64,000 nt of DNA, taken from Hellea sp. Lineage in GTDB: Bacteria > Pseudomonadota > Alphaproteobacteria > Caulobacterales > Maricaulaceae. The stretch is taken from NCBI GenBank assembly GCA_013002305.1, contig JABDKG010000087.1:124001-188000 (forward strand), given 5' to 3'. The notes under the pieces were generated by a model. The model saw only the letters and a list, made by a program, of their open reading frames with translations, was not told the origin of the DNA and did not search any database. Below, in pieces: positions 49,884 through 57,386 of the stretch (its first letter is position 1; every line of letters begins with the position of its first letter). Position numbers and translations under genes: made by a program.

Positions 49884-52800
49884 ATGAAACGTACTCTATT
49901 AATGGCCGTAAGTGCCGTGGTGTTAACAGCACCAACCATCGCTCAGGAATTACCACCTGGTAATCCATTACCTGGCGAATGCTTTGCCCGCGTTTTAGTG
50001 CCGGCAACCTATGAAACATCAACCGAGCAGGTTGTGCAGCGCGCTGCTTCTGAAGAACTCAGAAAAATTCCAGCTCGCTATGAAACCGTAACCGAGCGGG
50101 TTCTCGTTCAGGAAGAAAGCTATCAGCTCGTTCCTGTTGGAACTTCCGGCTACCGTTATCCGTCGAACGTTACCTTTGGTGGCGCGACATACTCTATAGA
50201 TGCGAACGGAATGGTCCGGACTCAATCTGCAGGGTCCGCAGGTGCCGCAGGCACTGTGATTGGTCGTGTTGACGCTAATGGCAATGTGGTTGGATCAGAT
50301 GGTTCAATGCTCGCAAGAAGCGCCGTTCGCGTAACGGCCACAAGCACAGGCAGCCAAACCGGCGCCTTGTCTCCAACATTCCGGACCGTTACCGAAACTG
50401 TCGTCGTTCAAGAAGCGTCAACAGAATTATTTACAGTTCCCGCAGTTTACGGAACGGAAACTGAAACAGTTGTCGTAAAGCCTGAGACCGTTGAATATGT
50501 TACGGTACCAGCCACTTACGAAACTTATAACGAAACTGTTGTGGTGCAAGAAGCATCGACTGAACTCGTTACTGTACCCCCTGTATTCGAGACAGTCACA
50601 GAAACAGTTGTCGTACAAGATGCTACAACTCAACTCGTAACAATCCCTGCTGAGTATGGAACGGTCTCCGAGACGGTAGTCGTTCAGCCACAAAGTGTAG
50701 ACTATGTGACTGTGCCGCCGACATATGAGACTGTAACTGAAACTGTTGTCGTTCAGGACGCTTCGACCCAATTGGTCTCTGTTCCTGCAACTTTTGACAC
50801 CGTAACAGAAACAATGGTGGTCAAAGACGCCTCAACTGAGCTGGTAACTATTCCGGCAACTTTTGAAACAGTCACTGAGACTGTTGTAGTCCAAGACGCC
50901 ACGACACAGCTTGTAACCGTCCCGCCTGTATTTGAAACTGTATCTGAAACAGTCGTCGTTCAGCCGCAAACGGTTACCTATGAAAGCATCCCGGCGACTT
51001 ACGGAACGGTTACTGAAACAATCGTCGTTCAGGAAGCTTCAACCGAGCTTGTCACTGTCCCAGCTGTATATGAAACTGTTTCCGAAACAGTTGTCGTTCA
51101 GCCACAAACAACTGAACTCGTAACAGTGCCCGCCGTATTTGGTTCGGTTACTGAAACGATCGTTGTTCAAGACGCTTCAACTGAGCTGGTCACTGTGCCG
51201 CCTGTGTTTGGTACCGTTTCTGAAACTGTTGTTGTTCAGCCTCAAACAGTTGAATATGCTGTATTACCTGCTGAGTATGAAACCTATAACGAGACTATCG
51301 TTGTGCAAGAAGCCTCTACTGAGCTGGCGACTATCCCAGCCGAGTTTGGCACCGTTTCTGAAACAGTGGTCGTTCAGCCAGCATCTGTCGAATATGTGAC
51401 AATGCCAGCTGTATTTGAAACTGTGCAAGAAGCTGTTATTGTTCAGGAAGCATCTTCTGAGCTTGTTACTGTACCACCTGTCTACGAGACAGTCTCTGAA
51501 ACCGTTGTCGTCCAGCCTCAAACTGTTGAATATGTAACAGTACCGCCGGTTTATGACACTGTTACGGAAACCGTCGTTGTTCAGGAAGCATCTACAGAAC
51601 TTGTTACAGTACCGGCCGTTTACGGAACTGTGACTGAAACAGTCGTCGTTCAGCCAGCATCTGTCACTTATGAGACAATACCTGCTGTATACGAAACCGT
51701 TCAGCGCCCTGTCGTTGTTCAGGAAGCCTCAACAGAGCTCGTAACAATACCGCCAGTCTTTGAGACCGTAACTGAGACCGTCGTTGTGACGCCACAAACC
51801 GTTACGTACAAAGTCATTCCGGCCGTATATGAAACTGTTCAAGAGGCTGTCGTTGTTCAAGCCGCTTCAACAGAACTTGTTACAGTGCCGCCTGTTTATG
51901 AGACCGTTACTGAAACCGTCATGGTACAAGCACAGTCAGTTGATTATGCGACTATTCCAGCGACATATGAGACCTACAATGAAACAATCGTTGTTCAGGA
52001 AGCCTCAAATGAGCTGATCACTGTCCCAGCGACTTTCGAAACTGTTACGGAAACAGTTGTCGTACAGCCACAATCCGTGACTTACACAACTCTACCGCCA
52101 GTATTTGATACTGTGACTGAAACCGTTGTTGTTCAGGAAGCATCTACTGAGTTGGTCATTGTACCGCCAGTATTTGAAACTGTTTCTGAAACTGTCGTCG
52201 TACAGCCGCAGACCGTTGACTATGTCGCTGTTCCAGCGACTTACGAAACCGTTCAGGAAACAGTCATTGTCCAGGAAGCGTCCACACAATTGGTCACTGT
52301 ACCGCCTGTGTTTGAAACAGTGTCGGAAACTGTTGTCGTTCAGCCAGCATCCGTCACCTATACTACGGTTCCAGCGGTATTCGAAACCGTCACTGAAACC
52401 GTTGTCGTTCAAGAAGCGTCTACAGAGTTGGTAACTGTGCCAGCCAAGTATAAGACTGTTACTGAAACCGTTGTTGTTCAAGAAGCATCAACAGAGCTGG
52501 TCACGATCCCGGCTGTGTTTGAAACTGTTGAAGAATCGGTTGTGGTTCAGGAAGCATCGACCGAATTGGTCACTATGCCACCTGTGTTCGAAACCGTTAC
52601 AGAAACGGTTGTTGTTCAAGCGCAATCTGTCGACTATGTTACTGTTCCAGCGACATATGAAACTTACAATGAAACTGTAGTCGTACAGGAAGCATCAACT
52701 GAACTCGTAACTGTGCCAGCCGAATACGGTACGGTGACAGAGACCGTTGTTGTACAAGATGCCTCAACGGAGCTGGTAACTATCCCAGCGGAATATGGAA

Positions 52801-55800
52801 CAGTTTCTGAAACAGTCGTTGTTCGCGAAGCCTCAACTGAGCTTGTCAGCGTACCGGCAACGTTCAAGACTGTAACTGAAACTGTTGTCGTTCAGCCACA
52901 ATCTGTCACCTATGAATCAGTGCCAGCAACATATGAAACATATGAAGAAGCTGTTATTGTACAGGAAGCCAGTTCAGAACTGATCGCCGTTCCAGCGACT
53001 TACAAAACCGTCAATGAGACGATTGTTGTCCAGGAAGCGACTACTGAGCTTGTCACTATTCCCGCGGAATATGAAACTGTCACTGAGACAGTCATTGTTC
53101 AGCCCCAAACCGTCGAATACGTCACCACTCCGGCGAAGTTCCAATCGGTACAGCAAACATATGTTGCTGAAGACGGCGCCGAGCAATTGGTTGTTGTTCC
53201 AGCCACTTTTGAAACAGTGACTGAAACGATTGTTGTTCAAGAAGCCTCCATGCGTCTCGAAGTTGTTCCAGCGACTTATAGAACGGTTACTGAAACCGTC
53301 GTTGTTCGTCCTGAGACAACGGATATTGATATTATCCCGGCGACTTACGAAACTCGCTCCGAGCAGGTCTTGATTACCCCGGCTCGTCAAGAGTGGAAGT
53401 CCTCGGCCCAAGCAGTCAATGCAGGTCAATTCCACTCAGGTACGGTCAATTCCAATACTCGTGGTCAATTCACTGTCTTTGATGGCGTTAATGAGCGCAT
53501 CGTAGAGTCTACACAAACAACGGTTTCTCAAACTGGCGAAATTCTGTGTCTTGTTCAGATACCGGCTGTGTACGAAACTATTACCAAGCAGGTTGTAAAG
53601 ACACCGGCTCGTACAGTTGAAAAACGCATCCCGGCGGTGACGAAAACCATCACACGCCGCGTTGTCGACACGCCAGCCAGCACACGTGAGATCGCGGTAC
53701 CGGCAATCACTGATACAATTACACGCCGCGTTGTTAAAACGCCGGCTCGCGTTGTTACTCAGGCAGCTTCGGGTAGTAAGACAGGCACGTTTACGCGATC
53801 AGAAATCGCGCAAGAAGCGCGTATAGCAGAACGTGTCATTCCAGCTGTTACCAAGCAAGTCTCTCGCCGCGTCGTCAAAACACCGGCCCGGACTGTGGAA
53901 AAAGTCGTCCCGGCTGTTACTCAGACAGTAACCCGCCGTGTGGTTGATACGCCTGCGACGACGCGCCAACGTACCATCCCGGCTGTGACGAAGATGGAAA
54001 CACGTCGACGTATCAAAACGCCAGCGCGTACAGTTGAGAAGGTCATTCCGGCCGTCACAAAGACTGTTACCCGCCGTGTGGTTGATAAGCCGGCCGCGAC
54101 GCAAGAACGCGTTATTCCAGCTGTCACTAAGACCGAAACCCGTCGCGTCGTAAAGACGCCAGCTCGGACAATGGAAAAAACCATTCCAGCTGTTACTCAG
54201 CAAATCACGCGTCGTGTTGTTAAGACACCGGCCCGAACTGTTGAGAAAGTCATTCCGGCTGTCACGAAAACGGAAACTCGCCGTCGCATCAAGACACCAG
54301 CTCGCACTGCCGAGAAGGTGATCCCAGCTGTGACCAAGCAGGTAACCCGTCGTGTCGTTAAGGAACCTGCTCGTACCGTCGAAAAGGTCATCCCGGCTGT
54401 CACTCGGATGCGTCAGCGTCGTGTTGTTAAAACACCGGCGGCGACTCAAGAGCGCGTTATTCCAGCAGTAACCAAGCAGGTTACACGCCGCGTTGTTGAC
54501 GTACCAGCACGGACAATGGAAAAAGTTATCCCAGCGATCACCAAGCAGGAAACACGCCGCGTCGTGAAAACGCCTGCTCGGACCGTTGAGAAGACTGTCC
54601 CGGCTGTAACTAAAACGGTTTCCCGTCGCGTCGTTAAGACACCAGCGGCGACAATGGAAAAAGTTGTTCCAGCAATCACCAAAGTGGAAACACGCCGTGT
54701 GATCAAGGATGCAGCTCGAACCGTTGAGAAGGTTGTTCCTGCGGTAACGAAGACTGTGTCCCGACGTGTCGTTAAGACTCCGGCTCGGACAATGGAAAAA
54801 GTTATCCCAGCTGTAACCAAGCAGGAAACTCGCCGCGTCGTGAAAACGCCAGGCCGGACCGTTGAGAAGGTTATTCCAGCGGTTACCAAGCAAGTAACTC
54901 GCCGTGTGGTGAAAGATCCAGCTCGGACCGTTCAGAAAGCCATCCCGGCGATTACGAAGACTGAAACACGTCGTCGCATCAAGACACCAGCTCGCACCGT
55001 CGAGAAGGTAATCCCGGCTGTAACTAAGCAGGTAACACGTCGCATCGTGAAAACACCGGCTCGGACTGTTGAGAAAGTCATTCCAGCGATTACAAAGATG
55101 GAACAGCGCCGCGTGATCAAGACGCCAGCTCGGACTGTCGAACAGGTTATCCCAGCTGTTACCAAGCAGGTTTCACGTCGCATTGTGAAAACTCCGGCTT
55201 CAACCATGGAAAAAGTTATTCCAGCGGTTACGAAGATGGAAACATCACGTGTCGTGAAGACACCGGCTCGGACTGTTGAGAAAACTGTTCCAGCGGTTAC
55301 CAAGCAAGTCTCCCGCCGTGTTGTTAAAACGCCTGCTCGCTCTGTCGAGAAGGTTGTTCCAGCGATCACTAAGCAGGAAACTCGCCGTATTGTGAAAACT
55401 CCGGCGTCAACAATCGAGAAAGTTATCCCAGCTGTGACGAAGACATTGTCTCGCCGCGTTGTGAAAACACCAGCTCGTACCGTTGAAAAGGTCATTCCAG
55501 CGATTACCAAGATGGAAACCCGCCGTGTTGTGAAGACACCAGCTCGCACCGTCGAGAAGGCTGTCCCAGCCGTAACTAAGACCGTTACGCGCCGCGTTGT
55601 TAAGACACCGGCTCGCACGATGGAAAAAACTATCCCGGCTGTTACGAAAACTGAAACCCGTCGTCGCATCAAGACGCCAGCTCGCACTGTCGAGAAGGTG
55701 GTTCCAGCGGTAACAAAGACAGTTACTCGTCGCGTTGTTAAAGAACCGGCACGATCAGTTGAGAAAGTCATTCCGGCTATCACAAAAACTGAAACACGCC

Positions 55801-57386
55801 GTGTTGTGAAAACACCAGCTCGGACCGTTGAGAAGGTCGTACCGGCCATCACTAAAACTGAAACTCGCCGAATTGTGAAAACACCGGCGCGGGCAGTAGA
55901 AAAAGTGATCCCGGCTATCACCAAGACTGAAACACGCCGCGTCGTGAAGGAACCAGCCCGCACAGTAGAGCGTGTTGTTCCAGCCGTGACGAAGCAGGTT
56001 TCCCGTCGTGTAGTTAAAACGCCAGCTTCAACTGTTGAGAAAGTTATCCCAGCAGTGACTAAGCAGGTTACACGCCGCGTGGTGAAGGATCCGGCCCGTA
56101 CAGTTGAGAAAGTAATTCCAGCTGTCACGAAAACCGTGTCTCGCCAGGTTGTTAAGACGCCAGCTCGTACGATGGAAAAAGTTATTCCAGCCGTTACGCA
56201 GCAGGTTCAACGCCGCGTCGTTAAGGAACCAGCCCGGACAGTCGAGAAAGTAATCCCGGCCGTTACGAAAACTGTGACCCGTCGCGTTGAGAAGACCCCT
56301 GCTCGCTCTGTCGAGAAAGTCATCCCAGCTGTGACCAAGCAAGTTACTCGCCGCGTCGTCAAGACACCGGCCAGGACTGTTGAAAAGGTTATTCCAGCAG
56401 TGACGAAGACGGAAACTCGTCGTCGGATCAAAACGCCGGCCAGTACCCAACAGCGAGTCATCCCAGCGGTTACCAAACAGGTTACCCGCCGGGTAGTGAA
56501 AACGCCAATGCGGACTGAAGAACGTGTTATTCCAGCTGTGACCAAAACCATCACACGTCGTGTTGTTGACGGGACACCAGCAATGGAACGCCGCGTCATC
56601 CCAGCTGTCTATGATACGATTGAAGTCACCCGACTGGTTGAACCAGCGCGGACTGAGTCAGTCGTAACGCCAGCCGCGTACAAAACGGTCGTTAAGGAAA
56701 CACTGTTAACTCCTGAGAAAATCGAGTGGCGTCAGGTTCTTTGCGAAGCCAACGCGACATCGACCGTCATAATGGCTATCCAGCGAGCGCTGAAAACGGA
56801 AGGATATTACACTCACACGATTGATGGTGTCCTTGGTCAGCAGACATACGCAGCGGTTGAGGCCTATCAAAAAGCCAATGGCCTATCCACAGGCGGTGTG
56901 ACATTGACAACGGTTGAACGTCTCGGCGTCGATTGGAGATCGATGGTCTCACGCCGGTCAGGTGCAGTCTCTGGAACAGTTGGTTCAGGCGGATTTTCGA
57001 CAGGAACGTCAACTGGAACCTTCTCAGGCGGACAATCCGTAACGATAGGTTCGGCGACTTACTCCATCAATAGCTCAGGCCAAGTCCTGGATGCCGGTGG
57101 TGCTGTTATTGGCCGTGTTGACGGAAACGGAAACATTGTGAATGCTTCCGGGCAGATCATCGGACGTATGTCATCTATGACGACAACGACGACTACCGGT
57201 TCAGGAATGGCTTCTGGCGCAACAGGCGGCGGATCATCCATGAGCTTGGGTTCAGCTGGCGGTTACACGCTACGGGCCGATGGCATGGTCGTTAGCTCCT
57301 CAGGTGCTGTAATTGGTCGTGTTGACGAAAACGGCAACATCATCAATACTGCCGGTCAGATCATTGGACGCTGGGTTAGAAACTAA
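49884..57386 (+). CDS. giant secreted 23-residue-repeat protein with peptidoglycan-binding domain
   Basis: 2500 residues. Signal peptide about 1-20 (TLLMAVSAVVLTAPTIA). Cys33 begins the mature repeat region: two units at 39-84, a Gly/Ser-rich linker with a GRVD motif (85-161), array 1 of 44 units (162-1173), a linker with Cys1222 (1174-1225), array 2 of 45 units (1226-2284, with one 24-residue insert), then a PG_binding_1-type domain (about 2287-2350: IMAIQRALKTEGYYTHTIDG, TYAAVEAYQKANGL) and a Gly/Ser-rich tail with two more GRVD motifs. Every unit is 23 residues. I know of short envelope proteins with the same plan, a few such units and an EWR...C...PG-binding end; this looks like an extreme expansion. 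Presumably periplasmic or surface-located and wall-bound. GGGGG lies 8 nt before the ATG. Confidence 0.9.
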   Translation: MKRTLLMAVSAVVLTAPTIAQELPPGNPLPGECFARVLVPATYETSTEQVVQRAASEELRKIPARYETVTERVLVQEESYQLVPVGTSGYRYPSNVTFGGATYSIDANGMVRTQSAGSAGAAGTVIGRVDANGNVVGSDGSMLARSAVRVTATSTGSQTGALSPTFRTVTETVVVQEASTELFTVPAVYGTETETVVVKPETVEYVTVPATYETYNETVVVQEASTELVTVPPVFETVTETVVVQDATTQLVTIPAEYGTVSETVVVQPQSVDYVTVPPTYETVTETVVVQDASTQLVSVPATFDTVTETMVVKDASTELVTIPATFETVTETVVVQDATTQLVTVPPVFETVSETVVVQPQTVTYESIPATYGTVTETIVVQEASTELVTVPAVYETVSETVVVQPQTTELVTVPAVFGSVTETIVVQDASTELVTVPPVFGTVSETVVVQPQTVEYAVLPAEYETYNETIVVQEASTELATIPAEFGTVSETVVVQPASVEYVTMPAVFETVQEAVIVQEASSELVTVPPVYETVSETVVVQPQTVEYVTVPPVYDTVTETVVVQEASTELVTVPAVYGTVTETVVVQPASVTYETIPAVYETVQRPVVVQEASTELVTIPPVFETVTETVVVTPQTVTYKVIPAVYETVQEAVVVQAASTELVTVPPVYETVTETVMVQAQSVDYATIPATYETYNETIVVQEASNELITVPATFETVTETVVVQPQSVTYTTLPPVFDTVTETVVVQEASTELVIVPPVFETVSETVVVQPQTVDYVAVPATYETVQETVIVQEASTQLVTVPPVFETVSETVVVQPASVTYTTVPAVFETVTETVVVQEASTELVTVPAKYKTVTETVVVQEASTELVTIPAVFETVEESVVVQEASTELVTMPPVFETVTETVVVQAQSVDYVTVPATYETYNETVVVQEASTELVTVPAEYGTVTETVVVQDASTELVTIPAEYGTVSETVVVREASTELVSVPATFKTVTETVVVQPQSVTYESVPATYETYEEAVIVQEASSELIAVPATYKTVNETIVVQEATTELVTIPAEYETVTETVIVQPQTVEYVTTPAKFQSVQQTYVAEDGAEQLVVVPATFETVTETIVVQEASMRLEVVPATYRTVTETVVVRPETTDIDIIPATYETRSEQVLITPARQEWKSSAQAVNAGQFHSGTVNSNTRGQFTVFDGVNERIVESTQTTVSQTGEILCLVQIPAVYETITKQVVKTPARTVEKRIPAVTKTITRRVVDTPASTREIAVPAITDTITRRVVKTPARVVTQAASGSKTGTFTRSEIAQEARIAERVIPAVTKQVSRRVVKTPARTVEKVVPAVTQTVTRRVVDTPATTRQRTIPAVTKMETRRRIKTPARTVEKVIPAVTKTVTRRVVDKPAATQERVIPAVTKTETRRVVKTPARTMEKTIPAVTQQITRRVVKTPARTVEKVIPAVTKTETRRRIKTPARTAEKVIPAVTKQVTRRVVKEPARTVEKVIPAVTRMRQRRVVKTPAATQERVIPAVTKQVTRRVVDVPARTMEKVIPAITKQETRRVVKTPARTVEKTVPAVTKTVSRRVVKTPAATMEKVVPAITKVETRRVIKDAARTVEKVVPAVTKTVSRRVVKTPARTMEKVIPAVTKQETRRVVKTPGRTVEKVIPAVTKQVTRRVVKDPARTVQKAIPAITKTETRRRIKTPARTVEKVIPAVTKQVTRRIVKTPARTVEKVIPAITKMEQRRVIKTPARTVEQVIPAVTKQVSRRIVKTPASTMEKVIPAVTKMETSRVVKTPARTVEKTVPAVTKQVSRRVVKTPARSVEKVVPAITKQETRRIVKTPASTIEKVIPAVTKTLSRRVVKTPARTVEKVIPAITKMETRRVVKTPARTVEKAVPAVTKTVTRRVVKTPARTMEKTIPAVTKTETRRRIKTPARTVEKVVPAVTKTVTRRVVKEPARSVEKVIPAITKTETRRVVKTPARTVEKVVPAITKTETRRIVKTPARAVEKVIPAITKTETRRVVKEPARTVERVVPAVTKQVSRRVVKTPASTVEKVIPAVTKQVTRRVVKDPARTVEKVIPAVTKTVSRQVVKTPARTMEKVIPAVTQQVQRRVVKEPARTVEKVIPAVTKTVTRRVEKTPARSVEKVIPAVTKQVTRRVVKTPARTVEKVIPAVTKTETRRRIKTPASTQQRVIPAVTKQVTRRVVKTPMRTEERVIPAVTKTITRRVVDGTPAMERRVIPAVYDTIEVTRLVEPARTESVVTPAAYKTVVKETLLTPEKIEWRQVLCEANATSTVIMAIQRALKTEGYYTHTIDGVLGQQTYAAVEAYQKANGLSTGGVTLTTVERLGVDWRSMVSRRSGAVSGTVGSGGFSTGTSTGTFSGGQSVTIGSATYSINSSGQVLDAGGAVIGRVDGNGNIVNASGQIIGRMSSMTTTTTTGSGMASGATGGGSSMSLGSAGGYTLRADGMVVSSSGAVIGRVDENGNIINTAGQIIGRWVRN
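50367..53402 (+). repeat. array 1: 44 in-frame 69-bp units (acidic 23-residue repeats)
   Basis: 44 contiguous units with no indel. Positions 1-7 are V/I-P-A/P-x-Y/F-E-T, 8-14 VTETVVV, 15-23 either QEASTELVT (type A) or QPQTVEYVT (type B). Each typical unit has four Glu and no Lys or Arg, so about -4. The last unit degenerates to TPARQEWKS. Confidence 0.95.
53559..56735 (+). repeat. array 2: 45 in-frame 69-bp units (basic 23-residue repeats)
   Basis: Three units (53559-53765), a 72-nt insert (53766-53837), then 42 contiguous units (53838-56735). Positions 1-7 are I/V-P-A-V/I-T-K-x, 8-14 V/E-T/S-RRVVK-like, 15-23 TPARTVEKV-like. Typical charge about +5 per unit. The last units drift to TPEKIEWRQ, like the end of array 1. 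Confidence 0.95.

What the first reader, a model, noticed from the sequence alone, without database searches (positions are those of the whole stretch)
49884..57386. 2500-residue secreted protein built of about 91 in-phase 23-residue units ending in a peptidoglycan-binding domain
Two N-terminal units, 44 contiguous units without a single indel, then 45 units with one 24-residue insert; signal peptide at the start, PG_binding_1-type domain at the end. The shared layout (Cys before each array, a final unit ending in EW[K/R], Cys and the PG domain after the last unit) matches, from memory, short alphaproteobacterial envelope proteins with a few units, so this looks like an extreme repeat expansion into a long wall-attached fibre or periplasmic spanner. 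The length in units, if constant between strains, would imply a measured distance; if variable, phase-like variation.
Basis: partly seen in the sequence, partly recalled or inferred. Interest (0 to 1): 0.93.

Follow-up and report, generated by a model that had tools for sequence, protein, structure and literature searches.

The report
Giant zippered hairpin on bacterial wall
One bacterial gene encodes a 2,500-residue protein, predicted to be exported, whose two oppositely charged chains of 46 repeats match each other unit for unit in reverse order, so it likely zips into a single hairpin that would be about a third of a micrometre long and is predicted to be fixed to the cell wall at its base.

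Summary
It is not two rods in series. In 18 relatives with 54 + 54 units, array 1 and array 2 covary in one antiparallel register (the three best of 460 registers lie together), in each third of the length; no parallel register stands out. An independent set of 132 short relatives (4 + 4 units) peaks within three residues of it. Array 1 is acidic, array 2 basic: position 6 of array 1 faces position 14 of array 2; of 144 Lys/Arg at the former 132 face Asp/Glu, and like charges meet 6 times in 1220 pairs. In the window protein all five reversals are matched. Unit counts are equal in 23 of 26 complete giants and in nearly all short relatives (4/4, 5/5, 6/6). Most likely a giant two-stranded beta hairpin (about 350 nm if extended), closed at its base beside the peptidoglycan-binding domain. 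Pairing would by itself freeze array length, so neither ruler nor phase variation is needed. Localisation, oligomeric state and cellular role are untested.

The parts
49884..57386 (+). gene of the giant protein, 2500 aa
   Evidence: orthologues
49884..49943 (+). signal peptide, res 1-20 (by eye)
   Evidence: sequence; MKRTLL...IAQ start shared by the complete orthologues fetched
49980..49982 (+). Cys33, at the base before array 1
   Evidence: invariant in 69 short forms
49998..50135 (+). array 1 units 1-2
50136..50366 (+). insert before array-1 unit 3; resembles the protein's own C-terminal repeats (47% over 69 residues)
   Evidence: no Pfam family on its own
50367..53402 (+). array 1 units 3-46, acidic arm
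   Evidence: array 1 net charge -131
53127..53195 (+). degenerate array-1 unit 43, fourth from the tip, opposite array-2 unit 4
   Evidence: pLDDT dip
53403..53558 (+). tip linker between the arms, with Cys1222
   Evidence: W to Cys2 is 51-52 residues in 29 of 32 giants measured, 58-59 in three
53559..53765 (+). array 2 units 1-3
53838..56735 (+). array 2 units 5-46, basic arm
   Evidence: array 2 net charge +172
56742..56744 (+). Cys2287, at the base after array 2; possible partner of Cys33
   Evidence: pairing inferred
56769..56924 (+). PG_binding_1 domain, res 2296-2347
   Evidence: 40.9 bits, cut-off 23
57117..57323 (+). C-terminal DUF3659 / beta-flower-like repeats

Best explanation
The window protein consists of two arrays of 46 units with opposite charge whose charged positions match in exact antiparallel register, so it likely folds as one giant two-stranded beta hairpin that is predicted to be fixed to the peptidoglycan at its base. 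Shown: unit i of array 1 and unit N+1-i of array 2 covary in the family, and salt-bridge partners swap sign together. Inferred: the arms hydrogen-bond as a beta ribbon of alternating 12- and 7-residue stretches with a two-residue kink after each; the tip is the 50-residue linker with the middle Cys; at the base Cys33 and Cys2287 would close a disulphide beside the PG_binding_1 domain. Extended, 46 units x 23 residues x about 0.33 nm gives about 350 nm (410 nm for 54 units), far more than a periplasm is deep, so the ribbon would have to run along the wall, as a reinforcing or scaffolding fibre, unless it coils or leaves the cell. An unequal change of one arm would break the register, which would explain why both arms keep equal, nearly frozen lengths.
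For: Giants: of 460 antiparallel registers the three best lie together (offsets -2, -3, -5; best is 5.4 SD above the mean); best parallel register 2.9 SD. Signal in base, middle and tip thirds. Short forms: peak at the neighbouring offsets -5, -4, -3, -6, best 4.0 SD. Charge swap A1-6/A2-14: 811 acidic-basic, 132 of 144 basic ones face acidic, 6 like-charged of 1220; log odds 2.81 at the right unit against -0.18 to 1.17 for shifts of 1-8 units. Window protein: Lys/Arg at array-1 units 3, 33, 39, 41, 45 face exactly the five Asp of array 2. Equal unit counts 54/54, 46/46, 4/4, 5/5, 6/6 by eye (L124). The most irregular units are partners, 51 + 4 = 55. AlphaFold2: strand limits of both arms of a short form mirror each other; the window piece has the same strands, and confidence dips at the two facing irregular units. 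Net charges; PG_binding_1.
Against: No coordinates were returned, so the predicted contacts were not seen; pTM is low (0.37, 0.23) and Foldseek found no significant fold match. Three of 26 complete giants have unequal arms (42/41, 52/48, 54/50), although in them the swaps stay in register when counted from the tip, so the surplus lies mid-arm. The peaks of the two data sets differ by three residues. One charge correlation (A1-16/A2-8, r -0.63) is out of register; I put it down to the two-unit alternation. The middle third's band is weak (z 1.76). Covariation cannot tell a hairpin from a swapped dimer. Periplasmic site and wall binding rest on sequence only.
Confidence: 0.8

Rival explanations
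1. Swapped antiparallel dimer: two extended molecules pair array 1 with the partner's array 2, giving one ribbon about twice as long with a peptidoglycan-binding domain at each end.
For: Gives the same covariation register, equal unit counts and charge swaps and would place the middle Cys of both chains near the twofold centre.
Against: A 51-59 residue linker between the arms allows a simple hairpin, which needs no partner; the prediction tools were given one chain only.
Confidence: 0.13
2. Two independent rods (for instance solenoids) in series that do not touch each other, forming a long spanner or periscope-like stalk.
For: Tandem units; covariation within an array at lags 46, 92 and 138 residues.
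Against: No reason for equal counts, for opposite charge or for a register-exact antiparallel charge swap. The within-array lags are multiples of the two-unit alternation and fit homogenisation among units.
Confidence: 0.04
3. Length itself is selected: the fibre is a ruler for a fixed distance, and pairing is only how it is built.
For: 18 of 26 complete giants have exactly 54/54 across several genera; positional orthology of units.
Against: 46/46 and 42/41 exist in the same family, and 52/48 and 54/50 occur; the pairing constraint alone predicts frozen lengths.
Confidence: 0.15

Closest known systems
Short 'peptidoglycan-binding domain-containing protein' family of Henriciella, Hyphomonas, Ponticaulis and kin (4/4 and 5/5 units; names)
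   Same: Same order of parts: Cys, array 1, W, linker with Cys, array 2, EWR, Cys, PG_binding_1; same antiparallel register within three residues
   Different: About a tenth of the units; weak charge separation; charge swap at positions 6/14 absent; 15 of the 22 short forms fetched first have an extra N-terminal Cys that reads by eye as a lipobox
Periscope Proteins (PMC8201768; abstract, opening text and outline seen)
   Same: Long repeat-built envelope proteins attached to the wall
   Different: Those are rods of folded, highly similar domains whose number varies and which project a ligand-binding domain; here units are divergent, counts are nearly fixed and two arrays are matched to each other
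Giant repeat adhesins such as MpAFP (PMC4083281; start of abstract in a listing)
   Same: Very long repeat protein of a Gram-negative bacterium
   Different: MpAFP: roughly 120 identical 104-residue Ca-dependent Ig-like domains in one array; here two complementary arrays of 23-residue units

Membership tests
short 4/4 peptidoglycan-binding repeat family | Cys - array 1 - W - linker - GEIxC - array 2 - EWR - Cys - PG_binding_1 | tested here: met
short 4/4 peptidoglycan-binding repeat family | equal unit number in both arrays | tested here: met
   window 46/46; 113 of 120 listed database forms 4/4 and 6 are 5/5, one unparsed
PG_binding_1 proteins | Pfam PF01471 over gathering score | tested here: met
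   actual binding to peptidoglycan not testable here
Periscope Proteins | tandem array of highly similar domains | tested here: not met
   units are 65-80% alike as DNA, longest exact repeat 29 bp
Periscope Proteins | repeat number varies between strains | not testable with these tools
   one genome per species is held; between species 54, 52, 46 or 42 units in array 1
known beta-hairpin or beta-fibre folds of the PDB | significant fold match of the arms | tested here: inconclusive
   no match at E <= 0.001 for either model; weak top matches are long-hairpin pore and phage proteins

The most novel reading that the evidence does not exclude
A new class of fibrous protein: two oppositely charged repeat arrays in one chain, kept equal in number, that zip together unit for unit into a beta hairpin of about 350-410 nm; by edge-to-edge pairing of acidic and basic arms such hairpins could tile into a wall-anchored periplasmic sheet or hoop.
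Probability: 0.4. Interest if true: 0.95.

Novelty: categorically new. Interest (0 to 1): 0.9.

Why it matters
It would be a protein whose repeat number is set by self-complementarity, as in the two strands of a stem-loop, with sign-swapped salt bridges readable over more than a thousand residues per arm. It turns a family that databases call only 'peptidoglycan-binding domain-containing protein' or 'hypothetical protein' into a testable structural class, with short 30-nm versions suited to crystallography, and offers a reason why a tandem array of about 50 units can stay frozen across genera. A wall-bound fibre of a third of a micrometre would be a new structural element of the Gram-negative envelope.

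Tried and rejected
Two rods in series, parallel pairing and a solenoid: parallel registers show no peak; lag-23 covariation within arrays is weak (0.009 and 0.050). Assembly artefact: rejected on repeat lengths, single-contig relatives (G010, G113) and agreement between species. Pfam UFL1_C (67.6 bits) on the basic arm taken as compositional, not tested further. Protein searches with the giant returned none of the giants (candidate lists capped at about 7990) and so say nothing on its rarity. The named-genome scan gave only four distant loci, so the host has no name here; 16S was not found in the genome. Placing the missing unit blocks of the 46/46 forms to test the geometry was ambiguous. Fold searches gave nothing significant.

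Full report
OBSERVATION. The ORF at 49884-57386 is intact and its protein is made of 23-residue units in two arrays. Counting the 24-residue piece at res 1295-1318 as a unit gives 46 + 46. That piece is a real unit: most relatives carry a longer interruption there (total gap 56-84 residues; 24-31 in G000, G033, G113 and G117), its C-terminal half aligns with units, and charge pairs on both sides of it are in register only if it counts. The longest exact repeat in the gene is 29 bp, so read length is not a concern.

RELATIVES. Searching 99 related genomes with the last 285 residues gave 63 with a match; in the family, 54 of 137 genomes have one at E <= 1e-20. By genus and frame length 38 of these hold the giant or a contig-cut piece and 16 a short form. 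I fetched 34 of the 37 other giants (not G116, G121, G154). With the window that is 35, of which 26 have both arms complete; 7 are cut by contig ends (G009, G025, G036, G105, G119, G158, G160) and 2 are broken or filled by N (G112, G155). Of the 34 fetched loci 32 show rplU close by and 22 the upstream HAD gene (several loci are cut); G010 shows putA but neither. A short form of relative G079 is identical to a database protein named from Henriciella, so the order is that of Hyphomonadaceae; that the family is Maricaulaceae-like is a guess. A contig length of another relative (G225) equals, from recall, the Hirschia baltica chromosome.

UNIT COUNTS. Arrays of 18 complete giants count 54/54, five 46/46 (the window, three of its genus, and G021), and three differ: G028 42/41 (a 73% complete draft), G122 52/48, G117 54/50 (with unit 4 counted). 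Short forms: of the best 120 of 1649 database hits 113 are 4/4, six 5/5, one unparsed; of 22 fetched loci 19 are 4/4 by script, L124 is 6/6 by eye with an insert, L125 and L126 are 4/4 by eye; of 50 further frames 45 are 4/4, one 5/5, one 3/4 through a frameshift in the draft (L162) and three have units below threshold at spacings that fit 4/4. These sets overlap in part.

ARRAYS ARE OLD AND FROZEN. Between genera, units at the same index are most alike (for example G010-G017 0.80 against 0.60 off-diagonal in array 1), with a two-unit and a four-unit superperiod. So the arrays were not re-expanded in each lineage.

PAIRING. In 132 short forms (of 142; the rest not indel-free 4/4) mean-field couplings averaged by register peak at x+y = 87 (0.276; all registers mean -0.004, SD 0.070), followed by 88, 89 and 86; the best parallel register is 0.150 (effective number of sequences only 20). 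In the 18 giants with 54/54 a different measure, with overall relatedness regressed out, peaks at offset -2 (0.0893), -3 and -5 from x+y = 1242 (mean 0.0014, SD 0.0162); parallel maximum 0.0446. The short forms' peak corresponds to offset -5, so the two sets agree within three residues; by segment the long stretches give k+l = 20, 21, 18 and the short ones 19. Base, middle and tip thirds each have -3 or -2 as best register (band z 2.3, 1.8, 2.6), and nine genomes chosen for divergence give -2 and -3 again. Some weaker peaks at multiples of 46 residues away reflect similar units.

CHARGE. In complete giants array 1 carries net -116 to -200 and array 2 +94 to +217. Over 1220 partner pairs of 24 giants, array-1 position 6 and array-2 position 14 are acidic/basic in 811, basic/acidic in 132, like-charged in 6. 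This count includes G028 laid out as 42/42 from its base, although its array 2 has 41 units; without it the correlation over 23 giants is -0.80. In the window protein Lys/Arg at units 3, 33, 39, 41 and 45 face the five Asp of array 2; chance of full coincidence about 1 in 1.2 million. In the three unequal giants the swaps near the tip stay in register when counted from the tip, and Arg3-Asp3 at the base is kept in G028 and G122. The second strongest charge correlation (-0.63) is out of register. Short forms lack this charge pair.

STRUCTURE. AlphaFold2 of the 4/4 form L032 (69 sequences, pLDDT 80.7, pTM 0.37) gives nine strands in each arm, 12 and 7 long with two-residue breaks; the limits of one arm map on the other by x+y = 88, including the short end strand. 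Most of this follows from the shared period; the end strands are the informative part. The window piece res 967-1436 (28 sequences, pLDDT 74.4, pTM 0.23) has the same strands, its unpartnered last stretch is coil, and confidence falls at residues 124-134 and 328-335, the two irregular units that would face each other. Foldseek's best but non-significant matches are to proteins with long hairpins, such as lysenin. The two Cys that flank the paired arms are invariant in 69 short forms, the middle one in 90% or more; L034, L035 and L126 lack only the middle one, which fits a disulphide between the outer two.

WORKING MODEL. Exported by Sec, held to peptidoglycan by the PG_binding_1 domain at the base, the chain zips back on itself; the tip lies about 350 nm away if the ribbon is straight. 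Since a periplasm is a few tens of nanometres deep (recalled), the ribbon would run along the wall. Export, wall binding, straightness and role are inferred. Some short forms carry a lipobox by eye (g7), so short members may join outer membrane and wall.

NOVELTY. Seven paper searches found no description of this family or of paired repeat arms; the library holds open-licence papers only.

Noticed in passing
L136, L139, L146 (giant-bearing relatives G020, G033, G028): A second, short protein with the same two arrays (4 + 4 by eye) but no peptidoglycan-binding domain and a Gly/Ser/His-rich tail; none found in the window's own genome.
   Followed up: partly
array-2 unit 4 of relatives (alignment); absent from the window at 53766-53837: The interruption holds a conserved DxNxDGxDDRDG stretch that looks like a calcium-binding loop, close to the hairpin tip.
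   Followed up: no
window 50136-50366 and 57117-57323: The insert near the start of array 1 resembles the C-terminal repeats (47%); both would lie at the hairpin base. C-terminal repeats match DUF3659 and, below cut-off, a 'beta-flower' family.
   Followed up: partly
arrays of 18 giants: Within-array covariation at lags of 46, 92 and 138 residues but hardly at 23 or 69: homogenisation between same-phase units, or a coil of the ribbon.
   Followed up: no
window 54932-56128 and other minus-strand ORFs in the gene: Long antisense open frames (up to 398 aa) arise from the repetitive codons; not taken as genes.
   Followed up: no
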